A stretch of 64,000 nucleotides of DNA, taken from Dasypus novemcinctus (Eukaryota > Chordata > Mammalia > Cingulata > Dasypodidae). Each line of letters opens with the position of its first letter. Position 1 is the first letter of the stretch. Below the pieces are notes generated by a model, which saw only the letters and a list, made by a program, of their open reading frames with translations, did not search any database and was not told the origin of the DNA. Location: the NCBI RefSeq assembly GCF_030445035.2, contig NC_080673.1, forward strand, positions 177,983,216 through 178,047,215, written 5' to 3'. Positions 13,291 to 64,000 of the stretch are shown here, piece by piece. A program made the position numbers and the translations under genes.

Positions 13291-13713
13291 TTGTGGGTGA
13301 GGTTTGGTGCTTGGTTGCCACCCAGATACTTGATGAGGGTGGAATCAAGAAAATGGCCTTTGGACAAGCCTGTGTAAAGGGCCCATGTGGTCCCAAGGAG
13401 AAGAAAGCATCATCCTAAGAATGACTCTCAGACTTTGACATCTAATGAAGTATGCCCTACAGATTTACTGAACTGTAGAGAATGCATGATTCACAATTCC
13501 CTCCCAATTTCTCCTTATGATAATGGAAATTTTTATCCTTTGTCCGTCCATTTTTGTATTGGAAGCAGAAAAATTGCTTTCAGAAGTCTATAGTCAGACC
13601 TGATTTTGCCCCAAGACAAACTGTACTTCTTCAAACTAACTGTGATATGATTCTGTATTTAGCATTGTACTGGTTTAAGGTGTTTTTGTTTGTTTGTTTG
13701 TAATGCCTTTTTG

Positions 13714-16700
13714 TTTTTTTTTTTAATTGATTTTGTAAAAATATTACATTAAAAAAAATATATGAGGAACCATTCAACCCCACCACCCCCACCCCACCAC
13801 TCCCCCCCCCCCCTCCCCAGCAACACTCATTCCCATCATCATGACACATCCATTGCATTTGGTAAGTACATCTCTGGGCACCTCTGCACCTCATGGTCAA
13901 TGGTCCACATCATGGCCCATACTCTCCCCCATTCCATCCAGTGGGCCCTGTGAGGATTTACAATGTCTGGTGATTGCCCCTGAAGCACCATCCAGGGCAG
14001 CTCTAAGTCCCAAAGACGCCTCCACATCTCGTCTCTTCCTGCCATTCCGCATACCCATTAGCCACCATGTCCACTTTTCCCACTCCAATGCCACCTTTTC
14101 TCTGTGGACATTGGATTGGTTGTGTCCATTGCACCTCTATGTCAAGAGGAGGCTCAGATTCCACATGGATACTGGATGCAATCCTTCCGCTTTCAGTTGT
14201 AGGCACTCTAGGCTCCATGGTGTGGTGGTTGTCCTTCTTCAACTCCATCTTAGCTGAGTGAGGTGAGTCCAATAAATCAGATTGTAGGTGCTGGAGTCTT
14301 TTGAGGCTCAGGGCCTGGCTATCACATTGTCAGTCCAGAGATTCAGATCCCCTAAATATATCTTAAACCCCAACACCAACTACAACTCCAGCACAGTAGC
14401 ATGAAAGTCTTATGAAGAGAGATCCCATCTGAGTCCAGATTCATCACGCAGAAACACCAGCTCCAAAGAAGGGCCATCTGACATGGCAGTGAACCCCATC
14501 TGCCATCACCATAGCACCCATGGGTCTCTTTAGCCCTCAAAGGAACCAATACCTGGAGGTTGTATCTACTTTATCTGTCTCTTAGACTCTGCTCAGTTGT
14601 GCATAAAGGCAATCCTTCTGACAGCCTCCAGACTCTTTTTTAGAGACTCGTAGCCATATAAACTCATTTCTCCTTTCCATTTCCCCCTTACATTAGGTCA
14701 AACAGCATTTTAAAGTCATGTTATTTTATGTAGACAGGGATATTCTGCTGATCCGCATTGAACCTTCCATTCCAGTCATTTTCCAGTTGCATCATCAGTT
14801 GGTAGTTGATAGTGATCCCTCGGTGCCAGGGAGGCTCATCCCCGGGTGTCATGTCCCACGCTGGGGGGAATACATTGCATTTACATGCTGAGTTTGGCTT
14901 CGAGACTGGCCACATTTGAGGAACATGAAGGCTGTCAGGAGGAAATTCCCAGGCACAATGCTACTCTAGGCCTTGTTCTTATTTTAGGCATATCAGCTCA
15001 CAAGCATAGTCATTAGCATCAGGGGCTCACTGTTGGACCCTCATTCCTTCCCGGTCCTTGCCACTGCACCTGGGAGACTGTCGCTGCTCCCCTAGGGACC
15101 ACGACAGAGCACCACCGGCCAGGAACCCAGTACACCCCCAGCTGTAGTTTTTAATTGTTGCCACTCTGAGTATATCCAAACATTACCATGCACCCTGGAC
15201 ATATGTCCTGTATAGCTCCCTGTCAGCCATATATCACCTGTCAATAGTATCCTATACTAGTATTCCTCCATTGCCATTGTTGAACCACTCTGTGATCCAG
15301 AACTTCCTGAAAATTGAAGCCCAATATAATGTCAGGATCCCTTACTAGCAAAATGGCATATAGCGATGGGTTTAAAGGTTAGATATAGAATACGTGTTGA
15401 CTTGGAAAAAATTCTACATCCTATCTTTTTCTTTTTTTTTTTTTCCCCTAATTATTGAACTTCTCTTAACAAGAGCCCTAGACCACAGCAATTCACATAT
15501 ATAATATACAGCACTCCCACACATCCACCACAAAACCTTTTCCCTTCCACAGCGATACTCTTATACCCTATTCACATCATATTTACTTAAAGTGATGTAC
15601 AGAGTCTGAGACAATAGCTCTCAAACAAGGTGACATCTGTGCTTACATTGTGGTGCTTACTTTAGGATACACAGTTTTCTAATTTTTTAGTTATCCTATG
15701 TTTTACATTATGGTTTACATTATCAGTCTGTCGTCTCCTATATGTTATGGTGTAATATTACATGTTTTATATCCATCCTTGTGTACTCTTGTGAAACTCC
15801 TCTCTTACCCCCCATTTACCTTGGTTCCACACATTTAACATCCATTTTCCCATCCACCTTGGTGCCCACAGTGACAGCCAACCTCCGTTTCCCGAGGAGC
15901 CACATCCAGAGATAGTGGGAATAGTGTTCAGGGCCTAACTTGCTCAACTGCCCTGGGAGCCACCCTTTCTCTCGAGAGATACAGTTCCCTCTATTTGATG
16001 GCATTAGTTCTCCCCAGGATGTGGGTCCACCCCCATTCTCACTACTTGGGTCTCTACCCAATGGTGCCACCCACTCTGGCAAAATGAGCATTCAGACATT
16101 CCCCAGGAGCCCGTCCCGCATCGGACCATCCCCTCCGAGCATTCTAAACAGGTAACCCTCTTAATTATATTTTGATACGATTTTCTCGGCATTTTACTCT
16201 CCACCAACCCCTGACACTCTCCTATGTTCGTATGCTACCCCTCCCTCCCCCCACTTTTGGGAAATATTACCCATCCGCCCATCCCCAGCCACCCTCAAAC
16301 CCGCAAAGCCCCTCCCAAAGGCAACCCTTGCCCCCATTTTATCTCTTCTTTGTGTTCATACTTACCACCAGCTCGTCATAAATTCCACCCCTGCAGACGT
16401 CGGCTCACATCCTTCCTCCACCCCCCGATTTCCTGTAAGCCTATCATTCAGTCTCTTGCTCTCTGAGGCAGCTTGCTTATTTCATATCATTGAGGTCATG
16501 TAGTATTTGTCCTTCAATGCCTGGGTTGCTTCACTCAACATAAGGTTCTTAAGATTCATCCATGTTATCACATGTGTTTGTAGTGTATTTGTTCTCACAG
16601 CCGAGTAGTATTCCATTGTGTGTATATACCACATTTTATTGATCCACTCATCTGTTGATGGGCATTTGGGTTGATTCCAACTTTTGGCGATAGTGAACAA

Positions 16701-47164: not shown

Positions 47165-47512
47165 TGTTGCACCATAACCTGAAATCTGCCCACTTCCCTA
47201 GCAACAGCTAACAGCACAAAACCACAAGTCCGCCCACAAGTTTCTGCCAATCCCCAGCCGCCCCGTAGCCCTCACTCCTCCTGCTCTACCCCGCCCTCCT
47301 CATTCTCTATATAACCCACTGCACTTCCTTAATAAAACGGACTTGCGCACAGACCTGGTCTCCGCGGCATTCTTCCTCCCCTCGCCGTGCGTCCTCCATG
47401 CCTGAGAGCCCCTCTGATGCTGTCTGCCGTAGAATCAGACGCCACTGCGGTCTAGTGTGACCCCTCCAAACCCCCCCCCGTCAGCATCGGGGTGCAAGCC
47501 GCCCCAGCCGCA
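47165..47512 (+). mobile_element. Solo LTR related to the betaretrovirus-like ERV
   Basis: A 348-bp LTR inserted in the L1, starting TGTTGCACCATAACC and ending CCCCAGCCGCA. The six bases TTTTTG precede it (47159-47164) and follow it (47513-47518), a 6-bp target duplication as betaretroviruses make. TATATAAC at 47308-47315 and AATAAA at 47331-47336 are 23 bp apart, the same spacing as in the ERV LTR at 57445-57843. The 29 bp from TATA box through poly(A) signal differ at three positions. It is GC-rich against AT-rich surroundings. Confidence 0.85.
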
Positions 47513-53934: not shown

Positions 53935-53963
53935 ATCTGCTGTTACATGCCTCCATGGTATTT

Positions 53964-56257
53964 GTTTTTTTGTCTTTATTTATTTTTTTAATATTACATT
54001 AAAAAATATGAAGTCCCCATATACCCCCCACCACCCTCATACCACTCCTCCCCCCATAACATCAATCTCCTCCATCATCATAAGACATTCATTGCATTTG
54101 GTGAATACATATCTGAGCACCATTGCACCTCTTGATCAATGCTCCACATCATAGCCCATACTCTCCCACAGTCCACTCAGTGGGCCATGGGAGGACATAC
54201 AATGTCTGGTAACTGTCCCTGCAGTACCATCCAGGACAACTCCAAGTCCCAAAAATGCCCCCACATCTCATCTCTTCCTTCCACTCCCTACCCCCAGCAG
54301 CCACTATGGCCACTTTCTCCACACCAATGCCACATTTTCCTCTATTACTAATCACAATAGTTCTTGAAAAGAATATCAGTAAGTCCACTCTAATCCATAC
54401 TCTATTCCTCCATCCTGTGGACCTTGGAATGGTTGTGTCCACTCCACAAATATATCAGGAGGGGGCTTAGATTGCACATGGATGCTGGATGCAATTCTCC
54501 TGCTTTCAGTTGCAGGCACTCTTGGCTCCCTGGTGTGGTGGTTGACCTTCTTCACCTCCATGTTAGCTGAGTGGGGTAAGACCAATAAACCAGAGTGTAG
54601 GAGCTGAAGTCTGTTGAGGCTCAGGGACTGGCTATCACATGGTCAGTCCAGAGATTCAGGTCCCTGGGTATATATTAAACCCCAGCACCAACTACAGTTC
54701 TGTTAAAAGTAACAGGAGAGGCTTATGGACAAAGATCACATCTGAGTCCAGCTCCATCACACAGAAACACAAACTCCAAAGTGGGGCCAAGTGACATGGC
54801 ACTGAACTCCATCTGCCATGACCATAGAACCTGTGGGTCTCTGTAGCCCTCAGAAGAACCAATACCTGAGGTTATATCCACTTTATCTGACTCTGGGACT
54901 CTGCTTAGGTGTGCATAAGGGCAACCCTTCTGATAACCTCCCAGTTCTTTTTGGAGACTCATAGCCATATAAACTCATTTGTCCTTTCCATTTCCCCCTT
55001 TGATTCAGGTCAAAAGCATTTTTAATTCCTGGTATTATATGTCGATTGAGATATTCTGTTGGTCCGAGTTGACCCTTTTATTCAAGGTCATTTTCTAGTT
55101 ACATCATCAGCTGGTACTTGGTAGTAATCCCTCGGCACCAGGGAGGTTCATCCCCAGAAGTCATGTCCCACACTGGGGGGAAGACAATGCATTTACATGC
55201 TGAGTTTGGCTTCAAGACTGGCCACATTTGAGCAACAAGGAGGCTCTCAAGAGGTAACTCTTAGGCACCCTGCAGCTCTAAGCCTTGTTCTTATTTCAGG
55301 TGCACAGGCTCACAAGCATAGTCATTAGTATCAAGGGCTCATTGTTGGACCTTCCTTCTTTTTGGTCTTTGCCGTTGCACTTGGGGGATTGTTGCTTTTC
55401 CTTCAGGAACTGTGATAGAGCTCCCCTGGCTAGGAACTCAGCACTCCCTCAGTTGTTGTTTTTAATTGTATCCACTATGAAAAGATCCAAACATTTTTAT
55501 GTGCCCTGGATATACACCCTGTAGAACTCCCTGCCAACCATGTGTCCCCTGTCAATAACATCCCACACCAGTGTTCCTCCCCTGCCATTGTTGAAACTCT
55601 CTGTCATCCAAAACTTCTTCAAAAGTGAAGCCCAATATATTGCCAGGTAACATTAATAGTAAAATGGAATATAGTGACGAGTTTAAAGTTAGATATAGAA
55701 TACATATTAATTTAGAAAAATTAAAGTAAAAATAAATTGGGGTATCAAAAAATTTAAAAATGCAAAAGCTTTGTTTTTGATGTTTTGTCTTCCATCACTG
55801 CAATAAGTGTTGCCCTGTATGCAAATTGGCATGGCAACTATTTCCGTCTTTTCCTCAGTGTCTATGTCCTATCTTTTTTTTTTTTCCTAATTATTAAGCT
55901 TATCTTCAGAAAAGTTTTAGGTCACAGTAATTCATATATACAATATACAGTACTCCCACATATCTAACATTAAACCCTTTTCCCTTCCACAGAAATAATC
56001 CTTTTACATATTCATACTATATTTACTGAAACCAATGCACAGATATTGAGACAATAGCTTTCAAACAAGGTAACATTTGGATTTACATTGTGGTTTATAT
56101 TTTAGACTATATAATTTTATAAATTTTTAGTTATCTTATGTTTCACATTATGATTTACATTTTAGCCTATCAGCCCCCATATATTTTTGGTGTAATTTAA
56201 CATGTCTTATATCCATCCTTGCGTACTCTTGTGGAACACTTCTATTGCCCACACAAT
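53964..56257 (-). mobile_element. 5'-truncated L1 nested in the larger L1
   Basis: Begins with a T-rich tail and covers about 2.3 kb of L1 3'UTR that matches 13740-15800 closely in order, for example the GCATTTACATGCTGAGTTTG block at 55189 and 14876. It is flanked by TCCATGGTATTT (53952-53963) and TCCATGATATTT (56258-56269), a 12-bp target duplication with one change. Removing it rejoins the ORF1 antisense of the host L1. Confidence 0.8.
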
Positions 56258-56639
56258 TCCATGATATTTTAAATATAATTTATTTTGGCTTCATTCCCAT
56301 AAGAACTGCTAGGTTTCTATGTAGGCTTTCAAACTCTTCTTTGTGATAACCCAATATCTTCTTAATATCCTTAATATCATTAGTCATCTCATTGAATTAA
56401 TTAAGAACATTTGTTTGAACATCTGTGATTAGTAGTCTCAACTCATTTCTGTCATCTAGGGGTTTATTTTATTCATTTGACTGGACCATATCTTCCTTCT
56501 TCTTGTCATGGATTCTAATTTTTGGCTGGAATCACAGCATCGGATTACTAGATACATTTATTTTGGTCACAGTTTCTTTATTTAGTTTAGGGCATTCTTG
56601 CTCTTTCTCCCTTTCTGGGTATTTATTAGAAGCCATGGA

Positions 56640-57444
56640 GGTGGTTGGTACTGTAATCTGTGGAGGCTGATGTTGCCCAGGTTTCCCCAGGAACCAGTGA
56701 AGCTTCTCCAACCTCTCTTCTCTGCCATGGTTAGGAACAAAGCTGCAGCCACGTGTAGTAATCCAAGTGTTTAGGCCAAGACCATCTGTAGTTGCCCAGA
56801 GAGACAGAGGAAGTTTCATGCCCCTTCCTACCCTCCCTGGAGTGGGGATGGACCCTTCATAGTGCCCAACAATCTAATCTATGTATGCTAAATACACCTG
56901 CAGTTGCCCTAATAAGCTGAGGGATTACTGATCCTTTTGCCCTTTAAAGGGTGGGGTTGAAACCAGGGGTGCCCATCAGGCCAATCTGTGCAGGCCAAAA
57001 GTACCTGCAGTTGCCCAGAAAGACTGAGAAAGCAAAGTTCTCTTCCTAATGTATTAGGTGTTGGAGGTGAAGCCATAGGACCCCAACAATATTGTCTGTG
57101 TAGACCAAGAGTTCCTGCAGTTGCCCAAGAAGCTAAGGAAACACCTGCCTCCTCCCATCCTACTGTGAGGTAAAAGTGGAGCCACAGGTACCCAACAGTT
57201 TAGTCTGTGCAGGTGCACTGAAAGGCACTGAAAGTGCCTGCCATTGCCCAGAGAGGCTGAGGATGCAAAGCTCTCCTCCTATCCTACTAGATGCTGGGGA
57301 TGGAGGCACAGGTGTCTGACTCTTTAATCTGTGTGGCTAAAAGCATTTGTCACTGTCAGAGTGGCTGAGGAAACACTAGATCACTCTTATTCTATGGGGA
57401 AGGTGGGGGTGGAGTCCAAGGCACCCAATGAACCAGTCTGTGCA
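56640..57444 (-). repeat. L1 5'UTR with ~110-bp tandem repeats
   Basis: At least five diverged units, recognisable by TGCAGTTGCCC/TGCCATTGCCC and by RRCCAACAnTnTnGTCTGTG-like blocks, spaced about 100-125 bp (near 56890, 56998, 57108, 57234, 57345). The proximal, non-repeated part resembles 5970-6200 in the other L1. The ERV has inserted in the last visible unit, just after GTCTGTGCA at 57436-57444. Repeated 5'UTR units often act as L1 promoters; activity here is inference. Confidence 0.65.
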
Positions 57445-57619
57445 TGCCGTCGGGCTGGAGGGCTTAGCCTCGCTCAGGTCCAAGAGTCAGGGGGGGGCTC
57501 GCTCCTGCCGAACCACCGGCAGGGGGTACTCCCGAAGGGAGCACTGGTTCTCCAGGCGTGGGGGACGCGCGGTTGGGGAAAAAACCACGGAGACCGCTTG
57601 AGTGCAAGAACAGGTCTGC

Positions 57620-57625
57620 TTTATT
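57620..57625 (-). promoter_or_regulatory. LTR polyadenylation signal AATAAA
   Basis: AATAAA on the minus strand within the 3' LTR, downstream of the TATA box; it would end viral transcripts in this LTR. Confidence 0.75.
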
Positions 57626-57640
57626 ATGGAAGTGCACTAG

Positions 57641-57648
57641 GTTATATA
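57641..57648 (-). promoter_or_regulatory. LTR TATA box
   Basis: TATATAAC on the minus strand, 23 bp (start to start) upstream of AATAAA. The spacing is the same in the solo LTR at 47165-47512. The matching box in the unseen 5' LTR would be the proviral promoter. Confidence 0.7.
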
Positions 57649-57843
57649 GGGTTGAGAGGGAGGAGTAAGATGGAGGGAGGGCTAGCTACGGGGCAGTAGT
57701 GGACAGGCTGAAGCTGATGGACAGCCCCGAGGTAAGCAGTTACTGGGGAAGAGGGCAGATTGTACATTGGCAATATGGGCGGGACTGGCGGGAAATATAG
57801 CTACGGCTGGAAAGGGGAGGAGGGGTGGCGAGAGGCAGCAACA

Positions 57844-57866
57844 ATTGCTCTCTTTTTGTTTTTTAA
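57844..57866 (-). promoter_or_regulatory. Polypurine tract
   Basis: On the minus strand, AAAAAACAAAAAGAGAG followed by CAAT lies directly before the LTR start. It is almost all purine and in the position where plus-strand DNA synthesis is primed. The single C within the run and the CAAT end make it slightly atypical. Confidence 0.6.
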
Positions 57867-58025
57867 AAGGGAAACAATGAGGAAGGGGAGGGAGATGGGT
57901 CGGGGGAAGGCGAAGGGTGAGGGGGCGAGACTGGCTGGCTATGGGCGGACAACATAGCATCTGGCCAGGACGCATGTGTCAGCCCTCTGGGTCGGTGCGC
58001 GCCGGTGCTAGGCGCACACCGAGCC

Positions 58026-59987
58026 TTACCAGCAAAACGGTCTCGCGATGCCCCTGAACCCTCCTAGAGGGGGGGGGAATGACAGGAGGCAGCTAGAGGC
58101 ATGAGGTACGAAGTAGGTCTCGCGGGCGGAAAGGGCGAGGAGGGCGGCGGGGGGGGACTCAGTGGTGGCGAGGCATTGGTAATGGACTTGTACGAAGGAG
58201 CTGAACACGGCGTTGGCTTGATCTTTGGCAAGGCGGACCATCTTTTTGATGGCCCAGGGGCCCACGGTGAGGGCTAAGATGACGATGATGAGTGGGCCTA
58301 GGAATGGAAGGAGGTAAGGGAGGAGGGTATGAAAAACACTGGACAAATAGTTCGCGTTTTCTCACTCTTTGCGGCGTCTATCTAGTCCCTCTTGGACTTT
58401 TTTTAGATTGTCCTCGACAAGGCCGGTGGAGTTGGCGTATATGCAGCATTCTTCTCCAAGGGCGGCACATAGACCTCCTTCTTTAAGGAGGAGGACGTCG
58501 AGGATGCGGCGGTTTTGGAGAACTACTTCGGAGAGAGAGTTAAGAGAGTCTTTTAGGTATTTTACAGCATTACAAAGATAGGTGATGTCCTCGTCAACGG
58601 CCTGCCTGAGAGATGAGAGGGCAGAGGACTGTGTGGAGAGGGCAGTGATCCCTGTGCCTGCTCCTGCGATACCCAAAAGGGAAGCAACTGTTAGGACTGC
58701 AGTGATTGGCTCCCTCTTTTGTAATTGGAGAGAGGTTTGTCTGCGCAACAAACGGCGGAAGAAATCAGTGTCAGAGTGGTAAAGGACTCGAGGGGCGAGA
58801 AGGATAAGCAGACAAGTTTCACTGGTAGCATTGAGGGTGGCGACATTGAGGCAGGGGGTTAATCCGGTGGAGGTACAAAGCCACTGGGAGGTGTTATGGG
58901 GGATTAAGAATTTGGCAGAGGTGCTAGGAGAGTAGTAGTTAGCGCAGGCGTGCATAAGGGGATGGGAGCCTTGGCGGGGACGAACGCAGTGCCCTGTGGA
59001 GGAAACAGATTGGAAGGTTAGGGGAACAGAGGAAGTGTTCCAGTTGCATCCAGTAGGAGAATTTTCGGAGGATTCGCTGAAGGTGAGGTTTGTGGCGACA
59101 GGTTCGTATAGAGGAAGAGAGGGGGAGAGACAAAGCCAGCAGCTCCGGGTGAGATTGGGGTGAGATGAGTTCAGAGAGGTGTATGAGGCTTTGATTAGGC
59201 TGATGAGAGGACTGGGAAGCTGACCAGGGGGTAAGTGAGGCTTGGGGTTGTGGGAGCTGAGAGAGGCAGTGGCGAGGGGGGTGCCGGGCGAAGGAGCCGG
59301 CAAGGTGGGGCGAGGTGGAGAAGGAGGCTGTGCCTTTGGAGGATTGAGAACTCGATTTGGGCCGATAGGGGTGGAGCGTGAGGGGATTGGCTCCTTTTTT
59401 ATAGAGATAATGCCGCCGTAATCATGACCCACTGCATACAAGCGGGCTCCCCACGTGCGGCCCTGTAGCCAGAGGTCAGAGTTGGGGTCTTTAACTGTGA
59501 GTGTGATGGTGTTCCATCGAGTAGCATTACGCTGGAGAATAAGGTATGGGTCCCTGTTAGGGGCGCCGGACCATCTGTGAGCGATGGTTACGCACCCCCA
59601 AGAAGGACAGTAGTAATGCGTTGGGTCATGACATCCTCTGGCGGAGGACGGGCACATGTAGAAACCTGTGGCAGAGAGGCTGTTTGGCCCCAAATTGTAA
59701 GATGGGATGTTTATGCGTCCAGTGAGATTGAGGACATCAGTTGTGAAAGAGGGGGCGGAGGCGGTCACGTTGGAGGCAAGGAGCTGGCTGCCGCCCTGGC
59801 AGCTCTCGCAGGTCAAGAGGGTGAGGGTCCAATTGAAGGGCTGATGATTCGGGTTGGCAGCGGCTGGGAGAGCGAAGGAAGCCAGGACGAAGGAGACGGT
59901 CGCGAGGTTGCATAGAGGCATCATTTGACGGTGCGGCATCTGTGGAGACAAAAGAAAAGAAAATTCCTCGCTCTCCACACGCGGCAA
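58026..59987 (-). pseudogene. env: env, gamma/type-D-like envelope, one in-frame stop
   Basis: The first open part is 541 codons (59987-58362). It starts with a leader: the Met at residue 1 or one at 22-23 precedes a hydrophobic stretch ending in ALPAAA near 44. Surface subunit: about ten N-glycosylation sites, a proline-rich hinge (about 209-260) and a CWLC motif at 283-286. A basic site lies near 411-425, then a hydrophobic fusion-peptide-like stretch (427-450), a heptad region, and CX6CC at Cys507, 514 and 515. A TGA at 58362-58364 interrupts the frame; the same frame continues at once to 58026 and carries the membrane-spanning segment (IIVILALTVGPW). As it stands, the product would lack its anchor. 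CWLC with CX6CC is the gamma/type-D class, in contrast to the betaretroviral pol. Confidence 0.9.
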
Positions 59988-60037
59988 GCGGGCAGCATGA
60001 GGGGGGTAAAGAGAGTGGGGTAAGGGTTAGAAACTTT

Positions 60038-62881
60038 TTATGAGGAGGCGTTTCTAAATGAGGGCTGGTGCTGGATCCGGGTGAACGGGGCGACTTCTGG
60101 GCCGTATCCTTTGTTAATGTTATCTCTCACTGAAGGCATAGGGTGCCGATCGTCTACTGGGACTAGAGGGTCGGTGGCAGGCCGGATGCAGCTCCCAGGG
60201 ATCCAGAGAGGTTGCGGCTTAGAATCTGGAAAGACACAAGCAAAGCCTCTCCCCTGTGCTAGGAGGGGAGCGGGATCTTGCCAACGATTGGTGGCAGGGT
60301 CTTTCCAATGGACAAGGGGAACTTGCGAGGGCTGCCACATGGGTCCCCAGTGCTTATGGGTGGGGGAGAGCCCCTGGTTATCGAAGGTTAAGAGATTGTG
60401 GTGAATGAGGCAGGCAGTCACGACGTCGGCTGGGGCCTTGTGGGGAGAGGAGGTTTTTTTCTTTTTGAATGAGTAGCTTGAACTGTTGGTGAGTGCGCTC
60501 GACGATTCCTTGCCCCTGTGGATTGTATGGAATGCCAAAGTGATGCGTGATGTGATACATCCGCACGAAGCTGACGAAGGCAGCACTGCGATATGCTGGT
60601 CCGTTATCTGTTTTGAGATCCCATGGGATTCCCATGAACAAAATAGCTTGGCGAAGCACCTTGATGCAATGTTTGGCGCTCTCCCCCGCGAGGGGGACTG
60701 CATAGCACAGATGTGAAAAGGTGTCAATTGCCACATGAAGATATTTGAGGCGGCCGAAGGCGCTGACATGAGTGACGTCTAATTGCCACCTCGAGTTTGG
60801 GCGGAGGCCGCGGGGGTTGACGCCCTGAGGCTTCAAATGTCCAAGTGGCAGCAAAGGCGTGCAAGTTCAGCACGCACGCACAAGGTGCTTGCAAGTTTCA
60901 ATAGGGATGTCTGGAAAGAGCTTCTGGATGGACCGCGCAGAGAAGTGAAATTGGGAATGTAAAAGCTTGGCTTGGTTGACAAAGTCTCCAAGCCGCGGTC
61001 CATCGGTGGAGTCTTCACGAAGAGTGACTGGGTTTATCTGATGGGCGGACATGGAAGCGTCAGCAAGGTCATTTCCCTGAGTCAGAGGCCCTGGTAGGCT
61101 AGAATGGCTTCTAATGTGAGCAATGAACCAGGGCTGTTGCCGTTCTTCAAGCAGTCGCTGCACAAAGGCGAGTGCCCAGTCGATGTTTGAGTTACTAGGA
61201 AAGTGGCAAGTGGAAGGCTACGACACACTTGAAGAGTGTATAGGCTGTCAGTAAAGATGTTGAGAGGCTGGTCTGGGTGAATATTGAGGACTGCAGCGAC
61301 GGCTAGAAGTTCGCCTACTTGAACAGAAAAGTCATTTGCGAACAGCAGTTGCCGCGGCTCAGGATTGTTGGGAGTGTATATGATGGCAGCAAACGTCGTT
61401 TTGGAGGCATCTGTGAAGGCAGAGATGGCAGAAGGAATTGGGTTCCATGCGGGCAATGGACAGAACGGGTTGGAAAACGCTAATTGAGACATTCCTTGCA
61501 GCAATTGGTGATGAGGATAGTGGTTGTCAAAGGAGCCACGAAAGAGCTCTACTAAGCTTTGCATTTGGGCATTGCTCATGATGAGGGAGGTAACATCCTT
61601 GGCATCTAAAGGCCGGACAATGGTGTGTGGCGGGACGCCGTATGTTTGTATGGAGAGAAGTAATAAGTCAGTGGCCAATGCGATCCAGGCTTTTATAAAA
61701 GGGCAGATTTTTGGGAGTTTGCTTTTTGACGTATGCAGAAAAAGGAGAGGGCCATCTTGCCACAAGAGGCCTGTGGGAGTGATTGGTGTTGGCAGGACTA
61801 AAGCTAAAACTGGAAGGTCAGGGGAAAACCGCTCTAGGCAGCATTGCTGTAGAGCGGCACTGACCTGTTGGACGGCTTCTCGGGCAGCGGGGGTGATGGT
61901 GATGTTACAAGTAACCGCAGTTGGTGGGCTATCCTTGGTCTGCAAGAGCTCGAAGAGGGGCTGCATTTGCGCTGTTGTGATGGGGAGCGCTGATCGAAGC
62001 CAATTGATTTGTCCGCAAAGCCGTTGGAGCTCAGTGAGTGTCATTTTGTGGGAGACGTGAATTTTTGGGCTCGCAGGTTGAATGGACTGGTGAAAATGAA
62101 AGCCTAAGAATTGAAAAGGAGGTTGGAGGTTTATTTTGTCAGACTGCACAGTAAGCCCGAGGCTGGAGAGGTTTGTTATTGTTGCTGAGAGCAGATCATT
62201 GAGGAGCGCATGGGAGCTCGCTGCCAAAAGGAGGTCGTCCATGTAGTGGAAGATGTATGTGTGCTCTGGATTGAACTTGGAGCGCAGCGGCTCAACGGCA
62301 TGGTTGACATACAATTGGCATATAGTAGGGCTGTTGCGCATGCCTTGAGGTAATACTTTCCATTGAAATCGCTGTGCTGCACCCTGGTTGTTGATGCGTG
62401 GAACTGTGAACGCGAACCTCGGACAGTCTCGGGGATGAAGAGGGATAGAGAAAAAGCAGTCTTTGATGTCAATGGTTGCTGCATAAAAATGTTGGGGGAC
62501 TGCGGTGGGATGCGGGCATCCTGGCTGAGGTGATCTCATTGGCTTAATATGCTTGTTGATCTCACGGAGGTCGTGGAGAAGGCAGAACTTGCCGGTGTTT
62601 TTCTTGTTAATGACAAAGATTGGCGAATTATAGGGACTAGTGGACGGCTTAATATGTCCTGCTTGTAGCTGCTCTTCAACGAGGGCAGAGAGAGCTTGTA
62701 GCTTGTGAGCTGGCAAGGGCCACTGCTCGACCCAGATGGGCTCCTCTGTGTCCCATTCCAGAGGGATAGGGTCAGGTTTTGCGACGAGAGCAGTGGCCCC
62801 TATAAGGGGGGGGGCAGCGTAGCTGAGAAGGCTTCTGTGATGATTCGGGCTTTTAGCTGGCTGAGGACATCTCTTCCCCAT
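60038..62881 (-). pseudogene. pol: pol: reverse transcriptase, RNase H and integrase, broken
   Basis: The first 599 codons (62881-61082) hold reverse transcriptase and most of RNase H: motif A Asp138, LPQG 177-180, YMDD 213-216, and RNase H acidic residues Asp491, Glu524 and Asp545. Near 61185 the reading moves back one frame (61163-60867), giving the end of RNase H and the integrase zinc-binding domain. A TGA at 60867-60869 lies inside the expected CX2C. The same frame resumes at 60854-60378 with the integrase core: Asp26, Asp83, Glu119 of that segment (DDX35E). At an A-rich run (plus 60451-60465) the reading returns to the first pol frame and gives the integrase C-terminal domain to 60038. 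It overlaps pro at its start by 82 bp, in the -1 frame. Confidence 0.9.
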
Positions 62882-63399
62882 AAGATGGTCTGGACTGAAG
62901 AGAGGACGAGTGGGCGAATTTGGCCTTCATGGCCTTCTCTGTCGCTCCAATGCAGAGGCTGGGATGTTTTCCAGGAGGTTGCGGCTCCTGTGGCACCGAT
63001 GACTTGAGGGCCAGTCTCGAGGGGCCAGTGATTAAATGCAGCGACTTCAAAAGGAACGCAGGAGATCTCAGCGCCAGAGTCTAGGAGTCCATCGAGCCAT
63101 TGCCCATCGATCCTGAGCTCTAATGAGGGTTTCCAGTGATGCGAGATAGGCATTGTCCACATTACGGCTTGGGAATTTTTCTGAGGGCCTCTTGAGGGTG
63201 GGGCTGAGGCCTGCCCCGCTGGGAGTTTAAAGGCTGCTGGAAACTTTGGGCGGCACGGCAGTCGCGGGCCCAGTGATATCCTTTCCCACAACGCGGACAT
63301 GGCGTAGAAGGGCCCCTTGGTCGTCGCGACGGCGGGTCGGAGTGAGGTGCCGGGCCTGGCTGAGAGCACTCGCGGACAAATTGGCCGGGCTGGCCGCAT
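62800..63399 (-). CDS. pro: pro: retroviral aspartic protease
   Basis: A 199-codon open frame, one frame back from gag and overlapping its end (63162-63399); the functional part begins within that overlap. The catalytic motif is DSGA at residues 107-110, preceded by the usual hydrophobic LDGLL; many retroviral proteases have DTGA, and Ser is an accepted variant. The flexible C-terminal signature ILWGRDVLSQL, a variant of the GRD/GRDL box, is at about 172-182. Most betaretroviral pro frames also encode a dUTPase; the roughly 80 residues ahead of the protease do not show one. The frame ends at a run of nine C's (62808-62816 on the complement), where it overlaps pol. It would be made as Gag-Pro by ribosomal frameshifting and would cleave the viral polyproteins. 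Confidence 0.85.
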   Translation of the reverse strand: MRPARPICPRVLSARPGTSLRPAVATTKGPFYAMSALWERISLGPRLPCRPKFPAAFKLPAGQASAPPSRGPQKNSQAVMWTMPISHHWKPSLELRIDGQWLDGLLDSGAEISCVPFEVAAFNHWPLETGPQVIGATGAATSWKTSQPLHWSDREGHEGQIRPLVLSSVQTILWGRDVLSQLKARIITEAFSATLPPPL

Positions 63400-64000
63400 C
63401 GAAAGCAGACGGAAGTGGAGGTAGATGAAACAGCCATGGCAGATGCAAAGGCAGCGGTGAGCGTTTTGACTTGCGGGTCAACGTCACGGCAGGCAAGGAC
63501 CCACTCATGCAGAGCCTTGTCACGTATAGGGAGGACTACAGCCTGGAATGGCGCAAGGCATCCGTCTATGATAAGCTCTTTGGCCAGCGCGAACTGGGCA
63601 TCCTCGCTGGAGATCTTTCGTTGGCAAGCTTCCAGAACACGGGCGACGAATGCTGGGAAGGTTTCATTGGGGTCTTGAAGCAATTGCGCGAGCTTGGTGG
63701 GCTGCTTGGTGGAAACTAGAGAGAACAATCGCTGGACGAGGACTTTTACCCGGTGCCAAAACCCTGGGTCGATTTCGGGATAAGAGCGAGGGTCTGCATA
63801 ATTGTTGGTCCCCGTGTATGCGTCGGATGGATCCAGGACGCCGGCTTGGGCATTCTCTATTACCTGCCGGTCAACAGCCGCCTGGTAGTGAGCGCGCCAT
63901 TCGATAAATTGTCCTGGCGTGAGGACGGCACGGGCTAGGGAAATCCAGTCATATGGGAGAACGAGCTGGGTTCCTAGCTCCTCCAGGAGCTGTTGCGCAT
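63162..64000 (-). CDS. gag: gag, partial: end of capsid and nucleocapsid
   Basis: Open from the window edge (64000) to a TAA at 63162, about 279 codons, continuing upstream outside the window. Capsid text includes PYDWISLARAVLTPGQFIEW (from about 63955) and the downstream major-homology-like DPNETFPAFVARVLEA. Nucleocapsid has two zinc knuckles. The first is CX2CX4QX4C (about 63407-63366), where the zinc-binding His has become Gln (63381-63383). The second (about 63299-63258) is a normal CX2CX4HX4C. The knuckles bind viral RNA. The last 238 bp overlap pro in the -1 frame; I see no classic slippery heptamer, only an AGAAAAATT run at about 63173-63181. Confidence 0.88.
   Translation of the reverse strand, partial: AQQLLEELGTQLVLPYDWISLARAVLTPGQFIEWRAHYQAAVDRQVIENAQAGVLDPSDAYTGTNNYADPRSYPEIDPGFWHRVKVLVQRLFSLVSTKQPTKLAQLLQDPNETFPAFVARVLEACQRKISSEDAQFALAKELIIDGCLAPFQAVVLPIRDKALHEWVLACRDVDPQVKTLTAAFASAMAVSSTSTSVCFRCGQPGQFVRECSQPGPAPHSDPPSRRPRGPSTPCPRCGKGYHWARDCRAAQSFQQPLNSQRGRPQPHPQEALRKIPKP

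What the first reader, a model, noticed from the sequence alone, without database searches (positions are those of the whole stretch)
57445..64000. Lightly damaged chimeric betaretrovirus-like provirus inserted into an L1 5'UTR
Gag, pro and pol follow the betaretroviral -1/-1 frame layout, while env has the CWLC and CX6CC motifs of gamma/type-D envelopes. Most of about 5.5 kb of coding sequence remains open, with only four visible lesions. The surrounding L1s and older ERVs are far more decayed, so this is the youngest large element in the window. A recent, perhaps unfixed, insertion is possible.
Basis: partly seen in the sequence, partly recalled or inferred. Interest (0 to 1): 0.75.

Follow-up and report, generated by a model that had tools for sequence, protein, structure and literature searches.

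The report
Old chimeric retrovirus in armadillo genome
In what is very likely the nine-banded armadillo genome sits a full-length but broken ancient retrovirus whose core genes resemble one retrovirus group and whose envelope gene resembles another; its two ends differ by 3.5%, so it likely entered millions of years ago and is an ordinary member of a kind that is already described.

Summary
In detail: a minus-strand provirus ends at window 57445, with gag, pro and pol in a -1/-1 layout, a gamma-type env with CWLC and CX6CC, and four visible lesions. The assembly is held, so I fetched the missing 5' end. The provirus is 8,027 bp (C1:178040660-178048686) with two ~399-nt LTRs, a lysine-type primer site and a perfect 6-bp target duplication, TGCACA. 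The LTRs differ at 14 of 398 sites (K=0.036; 8 of 14 are CpG transitions): about 8 My at 2.2e-9, 3-20 My over plausible rates. Several sibling copies have closer LTRs (1.0-2.0%). Gag, protease, RT and integrase match betaretrovirus-like proteins best; Env matches syncytin-1/MLV-type envelopes. Sibling copies carry the same pairing. An unfixed chimeric endogenous betaretrovirus of this armadillo is already published (Malicorne 2016; only citations and passages in other papers seen). This copy is a defective, older member of that kind. Its fixation could not be tested.

The parts
57439..57444 (.). 6-bp target-site duplication (TGCACA in provirus sense), 3' copy; the 5' copy lies just outside the 5' LTR at C1:178048687-178048692
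   Evidence: both flanking hexamers are TGCACA
57445..57843 (-). 3' LTR, 399 nt, TG...CA, with TATA-like and AATAAA stretches
   Evidence: defined by alignment to the 5' LTR (L009, C1:178048289-178048686)
57845..57864 (-). purine-rich tract directly upstream of the 3' LTR (predicted polypurine tract)
   Evidence: sequence printed; function inferred
58026..58361 (-). env, downstream piece after the in-frame stop: membrane-spanning segment and cytoplasmic tail (last ~13 codons possibly out of frame)
   Evidence: (TLV_coat 21.7 bits, under the cut-off of 22.5)
58362..58364 (-). in-frame stop codon in env, before the membrane anchor
   Evidence: some sibling copies, such as those on C28 and C13, have open env frames of 644 and 681 codons
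58362..59939 (-). env, main open piece: signal peptide, SU with CWLC, TM ectodomain with CX6CC; gammaretrovirus type
   Evidence: start codon inferred
60038..60445 (-). pol, integrase C-terminal piece (IN_DBD_C)
60432..60456 (-). frameshift between integrase core and C-terminal piece (approximate position)
   Evidence: frame change with 4 of 4 pol relatives compared
60867..60869 (-). in-frame stop in the integrase N-terminal domain
   Evidence: the relatives' matches run across it in one frame
60446..61202 (-). pol, rest of RNase H and integrase core (rve, DDE residues present in the translation)
61184..61202 (-). frameshift inside RNase H (approximate position)
61203..62926 (-). pol, RT with YMDD, thumb, connection and start of RNase H
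62800..63477 (-). pro ORF, aspartic protease with DSG active site; no dUTPase match
63225..63231 (-). predicted gag-pro slippery heptamer TTTAAAC
63162..64000 (-). gag, C-terminal part (capsid, two zinc knuckles, the first without its histidine); continues beyond the window in L009 with a likely start MGASLS and a PPPY motif
56256..57438 (-). host flank: decayed L1 5' region with ~110-bp tandem repeats into which the provirus inserted
47165..47512 (+). older solo LTR of a related family (348 nt) inside another L1-like repeat, with 6-bp duplication TTTTTG on both sides

Best explanation
This is one complete but defective 8-kb provirus of a many-copy endogenous retrovirus family, in what is very likely the nine-banded armadillo genome, with betaretrovirus-like gag, pro and pol and a gammaretrovirus-type env, flanked by a 6-bp duplication where it likely integrated into an old L1 5' region. 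Shown: the anatomy, the two LTRs, the matching 6-bp duplication, the frame layout, four lesions, and sibling copies with the same gene order. Inferred: a virus of this chimeric type entered the germ line; this copy was made by reverse transcription primed by a lysine tRNA and placed by its integrase some 3-20 (best guess about 8) million years ago; since then it has decayed neutrally. As it stands it would not make working RNase H, integrase or an anchored envelope. The joining of class II core genes to a gamma-type env most likely happened in an ancestor of the family, not at this locus.
For: LTR pair 399/398 nt, TG...CA, 14 of 398 mismatches, TSD TGCACA on both sides, primer site TTTGGCGCCCGAACGTGGGGC. 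Empty-site continuity. Best PDB matches by sequence: RT to a 'Polymerase' chain 7sr6 (E=1.8e-110, next best 6e-44), integrase core to 5cz2/3jca/7usf, protease to 3sqf/1nso, capsid to 8c9m, 6hwi and ERV-K Gag (I recall 7sr6 as HERV-K, the integrases as MMTV, 3sqf and 6hwi as M-PMV); Env to syncytin-1, MLV-related and ERV-S71 Env. RT model: the best viral matches are a human endogenous retrovirus (38%) and a python ERV (35%), while a bat gammaretrovirus ranks 46th at 23%. RT tree of 54 rows (53 of the 120 listed hits plus the window): the window groups with three unnamed relatives (99, starred), apart from SRV-1, IAP and ERV-K rows. Host: the top three Env hits are Dasypus novemcinctus, and contigs C24 (114,737,117) and C3 (187,432,307) have exactly the lengths listed for the contigs of Dasypus proteins P0002 and P0037. 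Family: 72 pol and 79 env rows listed, window included, both lower bounds; a listed env lies 2.8-2.9 kb (once 3.8 kb) downstream of the pol match start in 15 of 72 pol rows, window included, and 4 of 4 further pol loci that I opened also carry this env type, two of them only in part. Two clocks agree within error: LTR divergence 1.8% per copy; lesion count 0.4-0.9% (95% range 0.12-2.1%, with recalled indel ratios).
Against: The age rests on recalled substitution rates and on 14 differences, 8 of them CpG transitions, so it may be overstated; the lesion count alone points lower. 39 full-length LTRs at other places match the window's 3' LTR at 96-98%, about as well as or better than its own 5' LTR at 96.25%; I read that as a burst of insertions of similar age, but gene conversion between copies is not excluded. 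The pro ORF shows no dUTPase, which I recall as usual in betaretroviruses. No gammaretroviral pol was in the RT tree, so class II placement rests on search rank, domain models and structure matches.
Confidence: 0.93

Rival explanations
1. Recent, possibly unfixed insertion: few lesions mean a young provirus still segregating in armadillos.
For: Only four lesions in about 5.75 kb of coding pieces; lesion-based divergence 0.4-0.9%. An unfixed member of this kind is reported in print (title of Malicorne 2016, seen as a citation).
Against: LTRs differ at 14 of 398 sites, K=0.036; several siblings have closer LTR pairs, 1.0-2.0%. No empty allele in the assembly, which is uninformative for one assembly.
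Confidence: 0.06
2. The provirus is younger than its LTRs suggest because gene conversion with other copies made one LTR differ.
For: Other loci's LTRs match the 3' LTR at 96-98%, no worse than its own partner.
Against: Perfect 6-bp duplication; differences lie along much of the LTR, with a cluster of four near its 5' end, and 8 of 14 are CpG transitions, as in ordinary decay; sibling pairs show a similar range.
Confidence: 0.08
3. The env stop left a secreted, anchorless Env that the host uses, for example to block a receptor.
For: The open env piece (554 codons stop to stop, 525 from the first likely start) ends just before the membrane anchor.
Against: Stops and frameshifts elsewhere in the copy fit neutral decay; no expression data; many sibling env rows also carry stops.
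Confidence: 0.02

Closest known systems
Unfixed chimeric endogenous betaretrovirus of the nine-banded armadillo (Dasy-env1.1 provirus, Malicorne et al. 2016, J Virol 90:8132)
   Same: Very likely the same host; betaretrovirus-like core genes with a gamma-type env. A review says the armadillo group was acquired about 12 My ago and has a recombinant env recognising ASCT2 (PMC10536682, passage); 162 near full-length armadillo env ORFs are cited from it (PMC10152393, passage).
   Different: This copy has a stopped env and 3.5% diverged LTRs. The paper itself is not held and no sequence under that name was available, so identity of lineage is not shown. The name Dasy-env1.1 and other details of its abstract are recalled.
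Simian type D retroviruses (SRV-1, M-PMV)
   Same: Class II gag-pro-pol with a gamma-type env (recalled); -1/-1 frames (recalled).
   Different: Pol only 39% identical to SRV-1 and outside its branch in the RT tree, so the armadillo chimera likely arose separately or very early.
Rabbit endogenous retrovirus H (RERV-H / HRV-5)
   Same: Highest identity among the 50 listed structure matches: 56% over 162 columns of an RT fragment (P89944, rank 42); described as a defective rabbit betaretrovirus with around 700 copies (PMC3265301, passage).
   Different: Only a fragment compared; its env and LTR not compared.
HERV-K / IAP group of class II endogenous retroviruses
   Same: Best full-length RT matches in solved and viral structures are a HERV-K-type RT (recalled) and a human ERV; 40% identity to IAP pol.
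   Different: Different env class (recalled); separate branch.

Membership tests
Class II (betaretrovirus-like) gag-pro-pol | gag, pro, pol in successive -1 frames | tested here: met
   frames; TTTAAAC slip site at the gag-pro overlap; at pro-pol only a run of C fits the pattern
Class II (betaretrovirus-like) gag-pro-pol | Gag_p24 capsid and CCHC knuckles | tested here: met
   Gag_p24 60.7 bits (cut-off 24), zf-CCHC_5 36.2 (27); the first knuckle lacks its histidine and scores 20.7 against 20.8. Matrix: Gag_p10 at 21.1 bits, below its cut-off of 23.9
Class II (betaretrovirus-like) gag-pro-pol | 6-bp target duplication | tested here: met
   also 7 of 7 dated siblings with a close LTR
Class II (betaretrovirus-like) gag-pro-pol | lysine tRNA primer site (sequence class recalled) | tested here: met
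   primer site printed; no host tRNA was compared
Genus Betaretrovirus proper | dUTPase in pro (recalled as usual) | tested here: not met
   only RVP found in the 225-codon pro ORF
Genus Betaretrovirus proper | pol nested among known betaretroviruses | tested here: inconclusive
   own clade with three unnamed relatives on a long stem (quick tree)
Gammaretrovirus-type (gamma/type D) Env | TLV_coat profile, CXXC in SU, CX6CC in TM | tested here: met
RD114/type D (ASCT2) interference group | use of ASCT2 as receptor | not testable with these tools
   no receptor assay; receptor-binding region 56% identical to P0001, 48% to P0002, and 45, 38 and 23% to P0004, P0009 and FeLV
Armadillo Dasy-env1.1 provirus lineage | host Dasypus and chimeric gene content | tested here: met
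Armadillo Dasy-env1.1 provirus lineage | sequence identity to Dasy-env1.1 | not testable with these tools
   paper not held; no protein under that name in the lists or 49
Armadillo Dasy-env1.1 provirus lineage | orf-x over integrase (reported for the armadillo element, PMC8877266 passage) | tested here: inconclusive
   no -1-frame ORF of 80 or more codons over the integrase core in 8 of 8 copies, window included; a +1-frame ORF of 118 or more codons in 8 of 8 of these closely related copies
Armadillo Dasy-env1.1 provirus lineage | insertion not fixed | not testable with these tools
   one assembly, single place

The most novel reading that the evidence does not exclude
Within one armadillo germ line this family exchanged envelope modules: one group of copies shares the window's receptor-binding domain (86-88% DNA identity, four copies) but not its TM (74-75%), while another shares its TM (87-88%, three copies) but not its receptor-binding domain (60-63%). 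The armadillo would then hold a fossil series of receptor-binding swaps on a constant betaretrovirus-like core.
Probability: 0.35. Interest if true: 0.5.

Novelty: new member of a known kind. Interest (0 to 1): 0.27.

Why it matters
The dated sibling pairs with an exact 6-bp duplication lie at 0.7-3.6% in 9 of 10 cases (one at 20%), so the family seems to have stayed active over a long span, and its younger copies, not this one, are candidates for population markers. The envelope groups offer a testable case of receptor-binding domain exchange in one host lineage.

Tried and rejected
I first placed the start of the 3' LTR at 57954 by eye, by likeness to the solo LTR; a shuffle control did not support it (359 of 500 shuffles scored as high) and the 5' LTR later fixed it at 57843.

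Two scans of viral contigs found no relatives. ARAGORN and Rfam found nothing in the window. The Env structure model was poor (mean pLDDT 54), so its fold matches carry little weight.

Env module exchange: identities invert between groups, but trees did not prove it. With all 25 rows, the starred branches of the RBD and SU-C+TM trees that I compared conflict only in the place of one copy, C43. With C43, C1a and P0002 left out, SU-C plus TM data recover the same clade as the RBD data (99/100). TM alone, with C1b also left out, does not decide (p 0.30 and 0.40). RBD data reject the alternative grouping only mildly (p 0.028 and 0.033). DNA identities were computed for 11 of the 20 fetched copies; C43 (71% RBD, 76% TM) and C45 (87%, 93%) fit neither group. 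One copy (C1a) looked RBD-swapped at protein level, but DNA identity (98%) showed a reading-frame effect. I therefore give it only as the novel case.

The idea that most family members lack env was dropped: 4 of 4 opened pol loci without a listed env hit do have this env type, two of them only in part. Of 40 loci planned for LTR dating, 30 were fetched and 18 of 30 gave both LTRs; 12 gave none at the expected place on one or both sides. Of the 18, five have K above 0.06 and several diverged LTRs have uncertain ends; 10 of 18 showed an exact 6-bp duplication, one of these ten at K=0.197. My first pol-env pairing script held only 15 env rows picked by eye; I repeated it with all 79 rows and got the same 15 of 72.


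Full report
What is there. The minus strand of window 57445-64000 carries the 3' four fifths of a retrovirus: 3' LTR, env, pol, pro and part of gag. Pfam finds capsid, zinc knuckles, aspartic protease, RT with thumb, a weak RNase H match under its cut-off, integrase core and C-terminal domain, and a TLV_coat envelope. Pro is in the -1 frame of gag, and pol in the -1 frame of pro. A TTTAAAC heptamer sits in the gag zero frame at 63231; at pro-pol only a run of C fits the slippery pattern.

Lesions. Reading relatives against the window shows frame changes at ~61184-61202 and ~60432-60456, and the ORF list shows in-frame stops at 60867 and 58362. The last ~13 codons of the env tail are not covered by the best relative and may hold a fifth. 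The first zinc knuckle lacks its histidine. Gag upstream of the window is open, with a likely MGASLS start and a PPPY motif and a Gag_p10 match under its cut-off.

The missing end. The whole assembly became searchable: 3.61 Gb in 546 contigs, window at C1:177983216-178047215. I fetched the next 3.4 kb. The 5' LTR lies at C1:178048289-178048686, so the provirus is 8,027 bp. The two LTRs are 399 and 398 nt, TG...CA, and differ at 14 of 398 aligned sites plus one gap; 8 of the 14 are CpG transitions. The hexamer TGCACA flanks both ends. The leader begins TTTGGCGCCCGAACGTGGGGC, which I recall as lysine-tRNA type. Joining the host flanks at one TGCACA gives a site that continues the ~110-bp repeats of the neighbourhood. 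These repeats lie upstream of an L1 ORF1 remnant on the same strand, so insertion into an L1 5' region is well supported. That L1 is old: the other 39 places scored match the flank at 70-79%.

Age. K2P is 0.036: about 8.2 My at 2.2e-9 per site per year (95% range 4.4-13.4), and 3.2-19.7 My over 1.5-3.0e-9 (rates recalled). A count of lesions in 5,754 coding nucleotides gives 0.4-0.9% per copy, 95% range 0.12-2.1%, against 1.8% per copy from the LTRs. I dated other copies: of 30 loci fetched, 18 gave both LTRs. The seven with an LTR close to the window's have K of 0.010, 0.018, 0.020, 0.020, 0.031, 0.034 and 0.036, all seven with exact 6-bp duplications. The lowest of all 18 is 0.007, in another LTR subfamily; the highest are 0.20 and 0.26. 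The window's copy is thus at the older end of its own LTR subfamily. Its 3' LTR matches 39 other full-length places at 96-98% (only 40 of 2,001 candidates were scored), no worse than its own partner, as expected if many copies went in at about the same time.

Host. The three best Env hits are Dasypus novemcinctus proteins, and contigs C24 and C3 have the exact lengths listed for the contigs of two Dasypus proteins. I take the host as nine-banded armadillo.

Chimera. By sequence, integrase, RT, protease and capsid find betaretrovirus-like solved structures best (virus names partly recalled), while Env finds syncytin-1, MLV-related and ERV-S71 envelopes. The RT model's best viral matches are class II, with a bat gammaretrovirus 46th at 23%. 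In an RT tree of 54 rows the window joins three unnamed relatives at 59, 53 and 48% identity, apart from SRV-1, IAP and ERV-K rows. No gammaretroviral pol was available for that tree. Fifteen of 72 listed pol loci, window included, have a listed env at similar spacing (both lists are truncated), and four of four others that I opened have it too, two only in part. So the chimera is shared by the sibling copies examined and is likely older than this insertion.

Envelope groups. Against the window, 20 sampled env copies include groups with opposite gradients (DNA identities for 11 of 20): C13b, C40b, C36a and C24 keep the receptor-binding domain (86-88% DNA) but not TM (74-75%); C36b, C26 and C2 keep TM (87-88%) but not the receptor-binding domain (60-63%). 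This suggests exchange of envelope parts, but the tree tests do not prove it.

Literature. In the listings no title names this locus; I opened passages of five papers only. Three of them cite Malicorne et al. 2016 (J Virol 90:8132) on an unfixed chimeric endogenous betaretrovirus of the nine-banded armadillo that uses ASCT2; I saw its title in their reference lists and sentences about it in PMC10536682, PMC8877266 and PMC10152393. The paper is not held, and what else I know of it is recalled. The kind is therefore known; this copy is a defective, moderately old member, with assignment to Dasy-env1.1 itself untested.

Verdict. Real, correctly described, ordinary in kind. The 'recent, perhaps unfixed' reading is not supported for age and untested for fixation.

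Noticed in passing
window 47165-47512: A 348-nt solo LTR of a related, older family (about 68% identity over the matched part) sits inside another L1-like repeat with a perfect 6-bp duplication TTTTTG.
   Followed up: yes
window 53961-56250 and 13710-15810: Two copies (78-81% identical) of a ~2.1-2.3-kb repeat without long ORFs (longest 163 codons); the first lies inside the L1, T-rich at one end and with a ~12-bp near-repeat at its edges, as if retroposed by L1.
   Followed up: partly
G000 C45, about 32-49 Mb: Nine of the 79 env rows lie on this 49.6-Mb contig: six full-length at 84%, each with at least one TAA stop, a pair at 94% with two TAG and one TAA each, and one partial. It looks like amplification of the region after the stops arose; the stop positions were not compared.
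   Followed up: no
proteins P0001 and P0002: Two Dasypus gene models named ST6GALNAC3 isoform X2 and NVL isoform X11 are retroviral Env proteins; either misnamed models or fusion transcripts of host genes with env.
   Followed up: no
sibling env copies C13b, C40b, C36a, C24 versus C36b, C26, C2 (loci L113, L114, L116, L118 versus L119, L121, L122): Receptor-binding domain and TM identities to the window run in opposite directions between groups.
   Followed up: partly
loci L001-L008, integrase region: An alternative +1-frame ORF of 118 or more codons over the integrase core is open in 8 of 8 closely related copies; possibly the orf-x reported for the armadillo element.
   Followed up: partly
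5' LTR ends of sibling copies: Primer sites vary within the pol family between forms that I recall as lysine-1,2-like, lysine-3-like and a form with one extra G, which the window has.
   Followed up: no
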